Positions 41,211 through 48,891 of a DNA stretch of 64,000 bases are shown here, in pieces. The stretch is from Shewanella cutis (GTDB taxonomy: Bacteria; Pseudomonadota; Gammaproteobacteria; Enterobacterales; Shewanellaceae). The stretch spans positions 62,001 to 126,000 of the forward strand of contig NZ_JACSDI010000003.1 in NCBI RefSeq assembly GCF_022410515.1, in the 5' to 3' direction. How positions within the stretch are numbered: the first letter of the stretch is position 1; each line of letters begins with the position of its first letter. Under the pieces are notes generated by a model. That model saw only the letters and a program-made list of their open reading frames with translations. It did not search any database and had not been told where the DNA came from. The position numbers and the translations under genes are program-made.

Positions 41211-41501
41211 AAGATGCGCTCATTGGAAAATAAAGTCGCAGTTTACGGCATAGTTGCAGCGGGGTAAACCTATCCTAAATCGTTAAATTTTGGCTAAGTT
41301 GCAGAATTCATCAAAATGTAACATTGGGAAAAACTTAGCTGTAGCCCTTGGTGTATCTGGATTTTGCCGCTGAGGTATAAGGGTGTTTTGTGTATATAGA
41401 CCAAAGCTGTCACATTTGAAATAAAACTGAAACAGATTCATTGCAAACTTTCGGTCGTTCCAAACCAATAACCAAGACGAACATAACGTCGAAAGGATTA
41501 A

Positions 41502-42470
41502 ATGATGAACGTTTTTTGTAAAACTCTACTTGCTTCTGCGCTAGCTTCTGCAACTCTGGCTTCTGCTTATGCCGCTGAGCCACTGACTGTTTATGGTAAG
41601 TTGAATGTTACCGCTCAATCAAACGATGAGAAAGGTGACGCTACAACATCTATTCAAAGTAATGCTTCTCGTTTTGGTGTGAAAGGTGACTTCGAATTAT
41701 CAAGCTCACTTACCGCTTTTTATACTGTTGAGTATCAAGTCGATACAGGTGCCGCATCGAGCGACAACTTTACTGCCCGTAATCAATTTGTTGGTTTAAA
41801 AGGTGGCTTTGGTTCTTTGTCCGTTGGTCGTAACGATACTTTGCTCAAGATTTCTCAAGGTGATGTTGACCAATTTAACGATCTTTCTGGCGACTTAACA
41901 AAATTATTTAAAGGTGAAGTTCGTGCCGCTCAAACAGCGACTTACCTAACACCTTCTTTTGGTGACTTCGTGTTTGGTGTCACTTATGTTGCGGAAGGTA
42001 ATGATGTAAAAAGTCAATTTGCTCAAGATGGTTTCAGCGTTGCAGCCATGTATGGTGACGCTAAGTTAAAGAAAACCGCTGTCTATGCAGCTTTAGCCTA
42101 CGATTCGGATGTGTCTGGATATGAAATCGTGCGTGCTAGCTTACAAGCCAAGTTAGCTGGTATCAAGTTAGGTGGTATGTATCAGCAACAGGAACAAACA
42201 TACAAATACAACACAACAACGGGCGAACCTGTTGAGGTGACTGCAGATAGTGCAACTGGTTACCTGTTGAGTGCTGCTTATGATATCAACGCTGTTACCT
42301 TAAAAGCTCAATTCCAAGACATGGAAGACTTAGGTGATTCATGGTCAGTAGGTGCGGATTACAACTTAGGCAAGCCGACTAAAGTGTTTGCTTTCTACAC
42401 CAATCGCTCTTTAGAAGCGAATACTGATGATGACAAATATATCGGTATTGGTTTAGAGCACAAGTTCTAA
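41502..42470 (+). CDS. Outer membrane general porin
   Basis: A 322-residue gram-negative porin: signal peptide (MMNVFCKTLLASALASATLA, cleavage before AEPLTVYGKLN), then alternating amphipathic strands that fit a 16-strand barrel, with RFGVKGDFELS, the FVGLKGGFGSLSVGR turn, and a C-terminal aromatic, IGIGLEHKF. It sits next to phoBR, which suggests a role in phosphate or anion entry. One CTGTCACATTT half-site (41407-41417) lies upstream but no full Pho box is visible. The mRNA start AAAUGAUGAACG (41500-41511) is complementary to a segment shared by three small-RNA-like elements at 46-48.8 kb. Confidence 0.9.
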   Translation: MMNVFCKTLLASALASATLASAYAAEPLTVYGKLNVTAQSNDEKGDATTSIQSNASRFGVKGDFELSSSLTAFYTVEYQVDTGAASSDNFTARNQFVGLKGGFGSLSVGRNDTLLKISQGDVDQFNDLSGDLTKLFKGEVRAAQTATYLTPSFGDFVFGVTYVAEGNDVKSQFAQDGFSVAAMYGDAKLKKTAVYAALAYDSDVSGYEIVRASLQAKLAGIKLGGMYQQQEQTYKYNTTTGEPVEVTADSATGYLLSAAYDINAVTLKAQFQDMEDLGDSWSVGADYNLGKPTKVFAFYTNRSLEANTDDDKYIGIGLEHKF

Positions 42471-45964: not shown

Positions 45965-46043
45965 TTTTCAGTCCTAAACCACCAACTTTTTGTTGGTGGT
46001 TATCATTTTTGGGGATTGTTCACTGAGGCTGAAAAGTGGGCAT

Positions 46044-46165
46044 AAAAAAAGCAACCTAATTAGGTTGCTGTAAATTCCAATTCGGAATCCGGGGACGGTC
46101 GCGCTAGAAACCATCTAAAGGAGAATGATGATGAACGAAGAAACTCATTGCAAAGATTCGGTTCA
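46044..46165 (-). ncRNA. Candidate sigmaE-dependent small RNA, element A
   Basis: Read on the minus strand, the RNA would start near 46165, a few bases after a sigmaE-like promoter (46171-46198). It would carry CGUUCAUCAUCAUUCUCC, then a hairpin GAUGGU/ACCGUC with loop UUCUAGCGCG, a second small hairpin AUUCC/GGAAU (46074-46088), and end in the terminator AGCAACCUAAUUAGGUUGCU plus a U-run (46044-46069). The first stem includes a U-G pair on this strand that would be a C-A mismatch on the other, which supports the minus strand. Two related elements lie at 48250 and 48688. I recognise no known family. Confidence 0.6.
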
Positions 46166-46170
46166 TAATA

Positions 46171-46198
46171 TCTGACTCAAGGGCGAGAAATTAGTTCA
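46171..46198 (-). promoter_or_regulatory. SigmaE-like promoter of element A
   Basis: On the minus strand TGAACTA (46198-46192) and TCAGA (46175-46171) are 16 bases apart. This fits the sigmaE pattern GGAACTT-N16-TCAAA/TCTGA with a few differences. The spacing is the same as for element C. Confidence 0.45.
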
Positions 46199-46420
46199 GC
46201 AAAAATAGAAAATTTTTGAAAATATTTTTTCTTACAACCCTTATATATTGAAAAATATGTGAATTTTATTATTACGAGTTAACTAAAGTCGACAATGACT
46301 AGGTATGGGCTTAAGCATTGTTACAAAATTAGGATGTGGGAAAAGCTTTATTCGATTGCGCATGAGTAAATCAGCGACCGATAATATGATCAGATAATTT
46401 ATCCTCCACAGGTTAGCTAA

Positions 46421-48241
46421 GTGATACATTCAGAAGACCAGCAAATGCCAATAGCACCCACAGCATGGGATTTAACTCGGGATTATCATTCTTTTGCTAA
46501 TACTGACCAAGTGCAGGTAACCCACCTTTCCTTAACGCTTACGGTTGACTTTGAGGCTCGTACCTTGCTTGGTGAGGCAGTGCTCTCTCTCAGGTATATA
46601 GAGTCGCAGGTTGCTGAATTATGGCTAGATACCAGAGGTTTAGCTATTTTATCGGTAATGACCGAGGCTCAAGTTCCCCTTGAGTTTTCACTCGAGGAGT
46701 CGAATGAAATACTCGGCCAAAAATTATCCATTCGTTTACCGCAGTTACAATGTGAACGGGTGTGCATTCGTTATCTCACATCAATGCAGGCACAGGGATT
46801 ACAGTGGCTAGCGCCAGAGCAAACGGCAGGTAAACAGTTACCTTATCTGTTTAGCCAATCGCAACCGATTAACGCCCGCAGCTGGATACCATTGCAGGAT
46901 ACGCCTAAGGTACGGATTACCTTCGATGCTAAAGTTCAAGTACCTAAAGGAATGCGCGCTGTAATGAGTGCGATGAATCATCCTGAGACGCCACTAGAAG
47001 GGACATTTCAATTTGAGATGGAAAAGCCCATCCCCACACATTTATTGGCGTTAGCCGTTGGTGATTTAGCATTTCAAGCCATTGGCCCACGTAGTGGCGT
47101 CTATACCGAACCTTGTATGTTGGAAGCTGCGGCAACTGAGTTTGCCGATACCGAACATATGCTTGATGTGGCGCAATCATTATTAGGCCCCTATGCCTGG
47201 GGGCGCTACGATATGATCATCTTGCCTCCGAGTTTTCCCTTCGGTGGGATGGAAAATCCGCGTTTAGCTTTTTTAACCCCAACCCTGATTGCGGGGGATA
47301 AGAGCCTAGTCTCAACGGTTGCCCATGAGCTGGCTCATTCATGGACAGGAAATTTAGTCAGTAATGCCACGTGGCGAGATCTCTGGTTAAACGAAGGTTT
47401 TACGACCTATTTCACCAATAGGATTGTGGAACAAGTCTATGGCAGGGAACAGGCCGAACTGGAATGGGTGATTGAATTTGGTCGACTACAAGAAGAAATC
47501 GCTGCCTTGCCACTTCATCGGCAAACCTTGCCCGCCAATGTGCAGCAGGCCGATCCTAATTTGGCCTTTAATCGCTTTACCTATGATAAGGCGTCGATGT
47601 TCGTCCATGATTTAGAGCGTCGTCTGGGGCGAGCCGAGTTTGATAAGTTCCTGTTTACCTATGTGCAGCACTTCGCTTTTAAGGCGATAACTACAGAAAT
47701 GTTTGTCAAATACGCAAAAGCGGCTTTAGTCGAAGCCTATCCGGATAAGATAAGTGAAGCCGAACTGCTGGAGTGGATTTACGGTGAGGGGTTGCCTCAG
47801 GGATATGTGGGGCCGACATCGCGAAGTTTAGATAAAGTCGATGATGCCTTGAACGATTTTTTACAGGGTAAGGCTGCGGCTCTGCTTAATGTAAAAAGCT
47901 GGCGTGTGCATCATTGGCAATATTTTTTGACTCAATTACCTGAAGTGCTGTCGCAAGTACAATTAATGGATTTGGATGACAGTTTTAAATTGACCGAATC
48001 GAACAATGCTGAAATTGCCTGTGACTGGTTTAGAGTTGCCATCCGTAATCATTATGATCCCGTTCTGCCAGCACTCAGCCGCTATTTGCAGCGTATCGGC
48101 CGGGGCAAATTTGTCCGTCCGCTTTACGCCGAATTAAAGATAGCTGGTTATCATACTGAGTTACAAAGCATTTATTCAAGCGCGCGCTCGGGCTATCACC
48201 CATCCATTCAAGTGCAGTTGGATAGAATGTTTAAGTCGTAA
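46421..48241 (+). CDS. M1-family aminopeptidase, leukotriene-A4-hydrolase type
   Basis: A 606-residue zinc metallopeptidase of family M1 with the architecture of the LTA4H/aminopeptidase B branch: N-terminal beta domain (about 15-205), catalytic domain with the PFGGMENP exopeptidase motif (about 270) and zinc motif HELAHSWTGN starting at His302, the third ligand Glu in WLNEGFTTYF (about 325), then a C-terminal helical domain (about 470-600). It lacks a signal peptide and is probably cytoplasmic. GTG at 46421 is used as start, with AGG upstream; ATG at 46445 is an alternative. It is distinct from PepN, which is longer. Confidence 0.9.
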   Translation: MIHSEDQQMPIAPTAWDLTRDYHSFANTDQVQVTHLSLTLTVDFEARTLLGEAVLSLRYIESQVAELWLDTRGLAILSVMTEAQVPLEFSLEESNEILGQKLSIRLPQLQCERVCIRYLTSMQAQGLQWLAPEQTAGKQLPYLFSQSQPINARSWIPLQDTPKVRITFDAKVQVPKGMRAVMSAMNHPETPLEGTFQFEMEKPIPTHLLALAVGDLAFQAIGPRSGVYTEPCMLEAAATEFADTEHMLDVAQSLLGPYAWGRYDMIILPPSFPFGGMENPRLAFLTPTLIAGDKSLVSTVAHELAHSWTGNLVSNATWRDLWLNEGFTTYFTNRIVEQVYGREQAELEWVIEFGRLQEEIAALPLHRQTLPANVQQADPNLAFNRFTYDKASMFVHDLERRLGRAEFDKFLFTYVQHFAFKAITTEMFVKYAKAALVEAYPDKISEAELLEWIYGEGLPQGYVGPTSRSLDKVDDALNDFLQGKAAALLNVKSWRVHHWQYFLTQLPEVLSQVQLMDLDDSFKLTESNNAEIACDWFRVAIRNHYDPVLPALSRYLQRIGRGKFVRPLYAELKIAGYHTELQSIYSSARSGYHPSIQVQLDRMFKS

Positions 48242-48249
48242 AAAGAGAT

Positions 48250-48385
48250 AAAAAAATGGCAACCCAAGGTTGCCATAAAAAAATCAAAGAAGGAGACAAA
48301 GGAATTCAGTGCGCTAGCGTGTATTCGATTGCTTCCCCAAAGGGAGATGATGAACGACCAACCAATTCAACTCTATGCGATAACG
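48250..48385 (-). ncRNA. Candidate small RNA, element B (weaker member)
   Basis: This minus-strand element shares with A and C the segment CGUUCAUCAUCUCCC (48356-48342), the core CUAGCGC (48317-48311), and a terminator UGGCAACCUUGGGUUGCCA followed by a U-run (48275-48250). The central hairpin and upstream promoter are less clear: TGAACCG (48397-48391) resembles a sigmaE -35, but no good -10 lies at the right distance. The 5' end is a guess. It starts nine bases after the peptidase gene stop, so the hairpin may also help end that transcript. Confidence 0.4.
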
Positions 48386-48555
48386 TGAAACGGTTCATTG
48401 AATTAAGTGGTGATTAAACCTGCTTAACTCACTACTAAACACATCATTTAGTAGTTAATTGTGCATTAAAGCGTATTCGTTAATCCTTACACTTAATCAG
48501 ACTAAGGCATTTTTAAAAAGTTCAGTGCGTGATAAAAATTTTTAAAATTATTTTC

Positions 48556-48627
48556 GGTTTCGGTTTCGGTTTCGGTTTCGGTTTCGGTTTCGGTTTTGGT
48601 TTCGGTTTTGGTTTTGGTTTTGGTTTT
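48556..48627 (+). repeat. Hexanucleotide tandem repeat (GGTTTC/GGTTTT)12
   Basis: Twelve head-to-tail hexamers: six GGTTTC, then GGTTTT, GGTTTC, and four GGTTTT. It lies in the 302-bp gap between elements B and C, in no gene. Repeats like this can change length by slippage. Regularly spaced GG pairs resemble telomere-like repeats and might form a two-layer G-quadruplex on the plus strand. Confidence 0.95.
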
Positions 48628-48687
48628 GGCAGTAAATACCGCAATCGATAAGTGGCTAGATTTATTTTACAAATAAATCATAGGTAT

Positions 48688-48794
48688 AAAAAAAGGCAAC
48701 CAATTGGTTGCCTAGTGACCTCTTCCTGGGTCAAGGGGGCCGCGCTAGAAGCCCCTGGGAGAATGATGAACATGAAAAAGACATTCGCTGTTCA
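48688..48794 (-). ncRNA. Candidate sigmaE-dependent small RNA, element C
   Basis: The best-formed of three related elements. A near-perfect sigmaE promoter lies at 48800-48827, so the RNA should start near 48794. It would carry GUUCAUCAUUCUCCC (48771-48757), a hairpin GGGGC/GCCCC with loop containing UUCUAGCGCG, a small hairpin UGACC/GGUCA (48716-48733), and the terminator AGGCAACCAAUUGGUUGCCU followed by Us (48713-48688). GUUCAUCAUU is complementary to AAUGAUGAAC at the porin start (41501-41510). The element lies 3' of the gpx gene on the same strand. Confidence 0.65.
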
Positions 48795-48799
48795 ATCTA

Positions 48800-48827
48800 T
48801 TTGAGGTGTTCATGGGACGAAAGTTCC
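48800..48827 (-). promoter_or_regulatory. SigmaE promoter of element C
   Basis: On the minus strand GGAACTT (48827-48821), a 16-base spacer, and TCAAA (48804-48800) match the sigmaE consensus exactly in the -35 and closely in the -10. Confidence 0.75.
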
Positions 48828-48891
48828 ACCTCAAATCAAAAATTATTCAAATTTTTTATTAAACATAAGTTTCAACGAGATAGTGGACTAC

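What the first reader, a model, noticed from the sequence alone, without database searches (positions are those of the whole stretch)
46044..48794. Family of three minus-strand small-RNA-like elements around an aminopeptidase gene
Three intergenic elements share the minus-strand segment GUUCAUCAU-UCUCC, a CUAGCGC core and a strong terminator of the form GCAACC...GGUUGC plus U-run. In A and C the core is the same 10-nt loop (UUCUAGCGCG) of a hairpin whose stem sequence differs (GAUGGU/ACCGUC in A, GGGGC/GCCCC in C), so the stem is kept while its sequence changes. In A one pair is U-G on the minus strand and would be C-A on the plus strand. A second small hairpin also differs in sequence between A and C. 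I do not recognise any described RNA family.
Basis: partly seen in the sequence, partly recalled or inferred. Interest (0 to 1): 0.92.

Follow-up and report, generated by a model that had tools for sequence, protein, structure and literature searches.

The report
Tandem porin-silencing small RNAs of Shewanella
Shewanella bacteria carry a cluster of related, predicted small-RNA genes with evolutionarily preserved hairpins, in one species seven side by side, that are likely switched on by cell-envelope stress and are predicted to silence outer-membrane porin genes by pairing with their start sites, a job done in E. coli by small RNAs reported as not found in Shewanella oneidensis.

Summary
A, B and C are minus-strand, terminator-ended RNA elements whose covariance models recognise each other. 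The C model hits 129 of 129 same-genus genomes. Of 59 named Shewanella loci, 54 carry recognisable copies, all opposite the aminopeptidase, up to seven in a row. Stems show two-sided changes above shuffles; G-U pairs indicate the minus strand. New here: (1) a sigma-E-type box GAACTW-N16-TCNRA precedes 24 of 26 A, 40 of 45 C and 88 of 124 B; rpoE of the same genome has a near-identical box. (2) C is an 18-nt perfect antisense, plus Shine-Dalgarno, of the start of the genome's top Porin_4 gene, a likely Omp35/OmpS38 orthologue. (3) A, and B in the own clade, match the start of the porin in this window. Rfam has no match. Most likely a Shewanella counterpart of MicA/RybB/VrrA, unusual as a tandem, copy-variable paralogue array. 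Transcription, sigma-E dependence and repression are inferred; nothing was measured.

The parts
46044..46164 (-). Element A: predicted sRNA of about 121 nt (start inferred from the promoter, end from the terminator)
   Evidence: a BLAST match to this stretch in 66 of 97 genus genomes, some of them partial
46171..46197 (-). A promoter, sigma-E type: GAACTA-N16-TCAGA
   Evidence: motif in 24 of 26 A elements; position
46120..46136 (-). A seed GUUCAUCAUCAUUCUCC, complementary to SD plus AUGAUGAAC starts
46094..46115 (-). A stem-loop 1 with the UCUAGCGC loop
   Evidence: covarying helix 1 of A3
46074..46088 (-). A stem-loop 2
   Evidence: helix 2 of A3
46044..46069 (-). A intrinsic terminator
   Evidence: helix 3 of A3 with U-run
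48250..48490 (-). Element B: predicted sRNA of about 241 nt if it starts at the boxed promoter
   Evidence: tandemly repeated in relatives
48497..48523 (-). B promoter, sigma-E type: GAACTT-N16-TCTGA
   Evidence: motif in 88 of 124 B elements within the 200 nt before the loop motif
48342..48355 (-). B seed GUUCAUCAUCUCCC
   Evidence: G000:C33:110342-110355
48290..48338 (-). B long hairpin with GCUAGCGC at its tip
   Evidence: fold of the window element and of relatives
48250..48276 (-). B intrinsic terminator
48688..48793 (-). Element C: predicted sRNA of about 106 nt
   Evidence: R1 model in 129 of 129 same-genus genomes
48800..48826 (-). C promoter, sigma-E type: GAACTT-N16-TCAAA
   Evidence: motif in 43 of 45 C elements, 40 of 45 in the strict form
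48769..48786 (-). C segment perfectly antisense (18 nt) to the start of the Omp35-like porin gene
48757..48761 (-). C CUCCC segment, antisense to that porin's Shine-Dalgarno GGGAG
48736..48755 (-). C stem-loop 1 with the UCUAGCGC loop
   Evidence: helix 1 of A2
48716..48733 (-). C stem-loop 2
   Evidence: helix 2 of A2
48688..48713 (-). C intrinsic terminator
   Evidence: helix 3 of A2
41492..41511 (+). Predicted target site of A and B: AAAGGA-N4-ATGATGAACG at the start of the window's porin gene (41502-42470)
46421..48241 (+). M1 aminopeptidase gene between A and B/C (syntenic marker, not part of the RNA system)
   Evidence: Pfam Peptidase_M1 and Leuk-A4-hydro_C

Best explanation
[quoted passage not shown] Each predicted RNA has a 5' part holding the pairing segments, a stem-loop that presents the invariant CUAGCGC, in A and C a second stem-loop, and a terminator with a U-run where Hfq would be expected to bind. 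C would target mainly the Omp35/OmpS38-like major porin; A, and B in the own clade, would target the porin encoded about 4.6 kb away beside phoB-phoR-pstS, with OmpW a further candidate. B is tandemly multiplied in many species, which would raise the dose. Shown by sequence: homology, structure covariation, strand, promoter motif, complementarity. Inferred: transcription, sigma-E control, Hfq binding, repression.
For: Compensatory pairs in A and C, with 53 and 51 G-U cells (C, A) against 6 and 4 A-C cells, so the folded strand is minus (hand tally). Mutual model hits. Strict promoter GAACTW-N16-TCNRA in A 24 of 26, C 40 of 45, B 88 of 124, against 0.03, 0.03 and 0.15 expected from base shuffles; in the looser form C 43 of 45 against 0.3. 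The rpoE gene of the same genome has GAACTT-N16-TCTAC upstream. C against the Omp35-like start: 18 nt contiguous plus GGGAG in the own genome; above all 252 background starts in 25 of 50 genomes, top 5% in 36 of 50. A against the window porin: above all 251 background starts in 12 of 27 rows, top 5% in 23 of 27. The porin frame has an MMN start in 51 of the 51 loci where it was found, of 59. Of 9 exact matches to the seed pattern outside the cluster in the own genome, five are at start codons, ompW and nrfA among them. Literature: Omp35 is said to be post-transcriptionally controlled while MicA and RybB are not found in S. oneidensis (PMC2659441, passages).
Against: No transcript data. Single-sequence folding does not favour the minus strand. 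RNAduplex energy does not single out the window porin (rank 17 for A, 65 for B, 53 for C, of 252). C does not favour the window porin (1 of 40 rows above all, 3 of 40 in the top 5%) and B does so in 13 of 115 (47 of 115 in the top 5%). In 14 of 50 genomes the C/Omp35 match is not in the top 5%. 36 of 124 B copies lack the motif. The strict motif is not found in the rpoE locus; its box was found with a weight matrix built from the elements themselves and differs in the last base. KGAACTT-N15-17-TCWRA is not enriched genome-wide (17 sites, two of them B and C, against 18 for the reversed control), so the motif counts only because it recurs at a fixed place. The seed is by nature complementary to SD-ATGATGAA, so hits at start sites are partly expected.
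Confidence: 0.76

Rival explanations
1. The RNAs are real and stress-induced but their main duty is not porin repression: the anti-start-codon seed serves a broad set of mRNAs (for example c-type cytochromes such as nrfA) and the porin matches are incidental.
For: nrfA and a Cytochrome_C554-like gene are among the exact seed matches at start codons; many of the B rows shown match the window porin only with the 9-mer ATGATGAAC; duplex energies are not discriminating.
Against: The 18-nt antisense of C to the Omp35-like start and its top-5% place in 36 of 50 genomes; the A/window-porin match in 23 of 27 rows.
Confidence: 0.14
2. Control is by another ECF sigma factor or a general promoter rather than sigma-E.
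For: ECF -35 boxes share the GAAC core (recalled); A and B use a TCTGA/TCAGA -10 while C uses TCAAA/TCTAA, so they may not have identical control; further, weaker RpoE-model matches exist in the genome.
Against: The box upstream of the genome's own rpoE scores best in 380 nt and has the same 16-nt spacing.
Confidence: 0.1
3. The functional strand is plus: short leader peptides (MMNMKKTF..., MMNEETH...) with their own ribosome sites.
For: The plus strand reads GGGAGAATGATGAACATGAAAAAG, a good-looking translation start, and folds as well as minus; 16 of 45 C homologues keep a 13-codon frame.
Against: Terminator U-runs and promoters are on minus; G-U pairs favour minus; the plus frames range from 5 to 55 codons in C homologues and 9 to 56 in A homologues.
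Confidence: 0.02
4. The elements are dispersed repeats or bare transcription terminators between convergent genes.
For: They lie between genes and end in terminators; B is repeated.
Against: R1 reports 2 matches in the own genome, C and A; the seed and the loop, outside the terminator, are invariant over 41 C and largely over 26 A sequences.
Confidence: 0.02

Closest known systems
MicA (enterobacterial sigma-E sRNA)
   Same: sigma-E control, short RNA of about 70 nt with a linear 5' pairing region that binds ompA mRNA (PMC4618604 passages; PMC1804206 abstract)
   Different: Lies between luxS and gshA and is reported conserved among the Enterobacteriaceae (PMC4618604 passages); no Rfam MicA match here; here a tandem family beside phoBR-pstS. 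The likeness of the seeds (UCAUCAUC) is recalled and was not tested as homology.
RybB
   Same: sigma-E sRNA that speeds decay of several omp mRNAs (PMC1804206 abstract); ompW is a candidate target in both (PMC2659441 passage)
   Different: Reported as not found in S. oneidensis (PMC2659441 passage); no Rfam match
VrrA of Vibrio
   Same: 140-nt sigma-E sRNA with a sigma-E consensus box that represses ompA by pairing with the 5' region (PMC2628432 passages)
   Different: Different locus (by vc1743 in that paper's passages); sequence homology not tested directly; target OmpA not tested here
RyhB of S. oneidensis
   Same: Hfq-dependent sRNA that destabilises omp35 and nrfA mRNA (PMC5826389 passages), two of the genes matched here
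   Different: Iron/Fur control, and no Rfam match links the elements to it; shows that omp35 is already an sRNA target
Tandem sibling sRNAs (OmrA/OmrB, Qrr, LhrC; recalled)
   Same: Paralogues sharing a seed, some side by side
   Different: Other regulators; not compared by any search

Membership tests
MicA (Rfam family of that name) | Match to the Rfam covariance model | tested here: not met
   No Rfam match at gathering score in the window nor any MicA hit at E up to 10 in 46030-48860
MicA (Rfam family of that name) | luxS-gshA location | tested here: not met
   Neighbours are pstS, an M1 aminopeptidase and glutathione peroxidase
RybB / VrrA | Match to a described sRNA family | tested here: not met
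   holds only for families in Rfam 15, and whether VrrA is one was not checked
sigma-E-dependent OMP-repressing sRNAs (functional class) | sigma-E-type promoter motif | tested here: met
   Motif level only; dependence on RpoE not measured
sigma-E-dependent OMP-repressing sRNAs (functional class) | Complementarity to OMP mRNA start regions above background | tested here: met
   for C and A; weaker for B, and not by duplex energy
sigma-E-dependent OMP-repressing sRNAs (functional class) | Stable short transcript | not testable with these tools
   No RNA-seq
sigma-E-dependent OMP-repressing sRNAs (functional class) | Repression of the OMP and Hfq dependence | not testable with these tools
   Needs bench work
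Structured RNA family | Compensatory base changes on the proposed strand | tested here: met
   for C and A; not counted for B

The most novel reading that the evidence does not exclude
A genus-wide envelope-stress RNA array: paralogous sRNAs share a universal anti-start-codon seed (against SD-AUGAUGAAC), each carries a private second segment that addresses it to one porin (18 nt in C against the major porin), the array grows and shrinks by tandem duplication to set dosage, and the invariant CUAGCGC loop makes a second contact with GCGCUAG codons at the signal-peptide end of the same porin mRNA.
Probability: 0.3. Interest if true: 0.8.

Novelty: new variant of a known kind. Interest (0 to 1): 0.7.

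Why it matters
[quoted passage not shown] oneidensis (PMC2659441, passages). A conserved RNA cluster with sigma-E-type promoters, complementary to the start of the likely orthologue of that porin, offers a concrete, testable candidate for the missing regulator. The copy-number-variable array with one shared seed is also a good natural system for how sRNA families duplicate and split targets. An RNA element present in 129 of 129 genus genomes examined without a match in Rfam 15 is worth a family entry.

Tried and rejected
RNAduplex energy ranking over 252 gene starts did not discriminate; contiguous and two-helix complementarity did better, and that measure was chosen after the energy ranking failed. 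The plus-strand leader-peptide idea was dropped. The pattern AGGA-N2-8-ATGATGAA found 13 sites, among them starts of exported proteins and also other genes, and was not used as evidence. GCGCUAG in porin coding sequence as partner of the loop: 37 of 51 Omp35-like genes read GCGCTAGCC at codons 21-23, and CTA at codon 22 is the most enriched codon of the first 45 (8.8-fold), but CTA is also the commonest codon at positions 5, 16 and 45 of these genes and only 14 of 52 window-type porins carry GCGCTAG, so it stays a lead. Homologues outside the genus: 7 of 23 other-genus family members gave weak R1 hits; 16 of the 23 were searched again and 14 loci scanned by pattern. Three of these (L280, L282, L284, all genus g4) hold GTTCATCATCATTCTCCC with a terminator, beside a glutathione-peroxidase-like frame in all three and a PstS-like frame in two (named by eye), but lack CTAGCGC; the other 11 show no such seed. 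In the order draw 2 of the 274 other genomes gave single weak hits, not read.

Selection caveats: the 197 elements (194 from 59 loci, 3 from the window) were picked by a pattern with CTAGCGC, TTCATC and a U-run, so those motifs are not evidence by themselves; 5 of 59 loci gave none. The class rule was simple and mis-sorts a few: for example L125:9587, an A, is counted as C, and L099:5858 and L129:7264, both A, and L135:13116, a C, are counted as B; one of the 27 'A' rows (L099:9559) is a C. Two of 126 B elements were dropped for short upstream sequence. Promoter controls are base shuffles, not dinucleotide shuffles. For one search I had Omp35-like matches in 97 genomes and used 52; 2 of these dropped out (G048 no C by pattern, G038 no porin by pattern), leaving 50. 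Background starts for all species were 252 genes sampled from the own genome, about 7% of it, with start codons chosen by a simple rule. One search printed only the first 45 of 115 B rows. The strand tally of G-U versus A-C cells was counted by hand.
Full report
WHAT IS THERE. The window is part of a Shewanella-type genome (G000:C33:62001-126000). Its relevant genes run porin (41502), phoB, phoR, pstS (44948), element A, M1 aminopeptidase (46421), element B, element C, glutathione peroxidase (49431, minus); names. A, B and C are on the minus strand. Each has a 5' segment with GUUCAUCAU...CUCC, a hairpin presenting CUAGCGC, and a GCAACC/GGUUGC-type terminator with a U-run. Single-sequence folding is only moderately better than shuffles (z -2.2, -1.4, -2.4 for A, B, C) and is as good on the plus strand (-2.2, -2.8, -2.6), so folding alone would not have settled it.

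HOMOLOGUES. BLAST with the C stretch finds a match in 96 of 97 drawn genus genomes, with the A stretch in 66 of 97, some of these partial. A covariance model of C (R1; 41 sequences) finds a match at E <= 0.001 in 129 of 129 genus members in a 152-genome family draw and weakly in 7 of the 23 other family members. In the order draw of 295 it matches 21 genus members (no genus member is among the misses listed; 252 misses are not listed) and 2 other genomes, both weakly. R2 (built from A) finds C and B in the window, and R1 finds A and B: the three are one family. In 59 named Shewanella loci around the aminopeptidase a pattern search found copies in 54, all on the strand opposite the peptidase gene. 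The usual arrangement is A upstream of the peptidase, one or more B-like copies after it, and C last; S. gelidimarina (L122) has six B plus C; in L088, L090 and L130 B-like copies also lie upstream. Three loci of one sister genus have a seed-bearing, terminator-ended element beside a glutathione-peroxidase-like frame (two of them also beside a PstS-like frame) that lacks the CUAGCGC loop, which suggests that the seed is older than the loop and the array.

STRUCTURE. In C, 19 pairs in three helices: 99.0% of cells pair; 6 pairs change on both sides (2 of 500 shuffles as high), 46 two-sided cells and the covariation score exceed all 500 shuffles, while the number of further pair types does not exceed them (306 of 500). 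In A, 20 pairs: 95.4% of cells, 9 pairs, 30 cells, each 0 of 500; further pair types 4 of 500. The shuffles do not keep relatedness. Sliding the partners by 1-3 columns, which does, drops pairing to 31-56%. G-U pairs on the minus strand (53 cells in C, 51 in A) far outnumber the A-C cells that would be G-U on plus (6 and 4; hand tally). The loop of A and C is an invariant UCUAGCGC. B copies fold as a long hairpin with GCUAGCGC at the tip and different stem sequences; B was aligned but its covariation was not counted.

PROMOTERS. A box GAACTW-N16-TCNRA lies upstream of 24 of 26 A, 40 of 45 C and 88 of 124 B, against under 0.2 expected from base shuffles in each class; with looser letters C rises to 43 of 45 against 0.3. 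The spacing is 16 nt in 122 of the 125 motifs and 17 in the other three. In the window: A 46171-46197, B 48497-48523, C 48800-48826. The same genome's rpoE (TIGR02939 above cut-off) has GAACTT-N16-TCTAC upstream, by far the best site in 380 nt by a weight matrix built from the elements; the stricter pattern had missed it by its last base. That this box is read by sigma-E is inference from the known consensus (recalled; VrrA is a described example, PMC2628432 passages). Sigma-E is an established envelope-stress factor in S. oneidensis (PMC8552667 passages; 'small RNA' and 'sRNA' do not occur in its main text).

TARGETS. The 5' part of C contains GAAUGUCUUUUUCAUGUU, the exact 18-nt antisense of AACATGAAAAAGACATTC at the start of the genome's best Porin_4 gene (L176), and CUCCC antisense to its GGGAG ribosome site. 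Of 252 sampled gene starts of the own genome none reaches this two-helix score (23 against a maximum of 15). Over 50 genomes the best-matching porin start is above every background start in 25 and in the top 5% in 36. In 14 genomes it is not, so target choice seems to have drifted. The porin sits beside a ParC-like frame (ParC, and hence the identity with SO_3896 Omp35/OmpS38, are recalled, not tested). For the window porin, the start AAAGGA-N4-ATGATGAACG pairs with A (6+10 nt) and with own-clade B (5+10 nt): A is above all 251 background starts in 12 of 27 rows and top 5% in 23 of 27; B in 13 and 47 of 115; C in 1 and 3 of 40. Its frame has an MMN start in all 51 loci where it was found, read as ATGATGAA(C/T). 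The genome-wide exact pattern TTCATCAT-N0-6-CTCC has 12 sites: the three elements and 9 others, of which five are at start codons (ompW, nrfA, a Cytochrome_C554-like gene and two unnamed). ompW fits the pathway; because the pattern is an anti-start pattern by nature, this list is suggestive only.

MECHANISM. The most economical reading is that unfolded porins activate sigma-E, sigma-E transcribes A, B and C, and these pair over porin ribosome sites and start codons, blocking initiation and hastening decay, probably with Hfq. Division of labour is by the 5' segments. Tandem B copies would raise dose or diversify targets. All steps after the sequence level are inferred.

KNOWN OR NEW. Works like MicA, RybB and VrrA; not a member of any of them by the tests made (Rfam, locus). 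Searches for Shewanella with small RNA, sigma E, porin, Hfq, RpoE, MicA, RybB, Omp35 and envelope stress listed no paper that, by its title or abstract start, describes this cluster; two of these lists were cut (25 of 46 papers, 15 of 139). omp35 and nrfA are already known targets of RyhB in S. oneidensis (PMC5826389 passages). I rate it a new variant of a known kind: the functional class is known, while the family and the tandem shared-seed array for envelope stress appear new.

Noticed in passing
window 48552-48629: A (TTTCGG/TTTTGG)n hexamer array lies between the B promoter and element C, in the interval where other species carry extra B copies; not analysed further.
   Followed up: no
L176 (G000:C11:885459-886424) and orthologues: GCGCTAGCC, complementary to the CUAGCGC loop, encodes Ala-Leu-Ala at codons 21-23 in 37 of 51 Omp35-like genes; codon bias may explain part of it.
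   Followed up: partly
window 46421-48241: The M1 peptidase has a leukotriene-A4-hydrolase-type C-terminal domain (Pfam Leuk-A4-hydro_C); non-Shewanella relatives listed were mostly Bacteroidetes/Flavobacteriales.
   Followed up: no
L280, L282, L284 (sister genus g4): A seed-bearing, terminator-ended element without the CUAGCGC loop sits beside a glutathione-peroxidase-like frame (and a PstS-like frame in two), a possible relative of the ancestor of the array.
   Followed up: partly
5' ends of A and C (46159-46164, 48788-48793): Both predicted 5' ends begin GAACMG, seen in many relatives; possibly a second pairing element.
   Followed up: no
window 41438-41455: The porin 5' leader holds TCATTGCAAA..TTCGGT, by eye nearly complementary to the 5' part of A, but in an order that cannot form one collinear duplex with the start-site pairing.
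   Followed up: no
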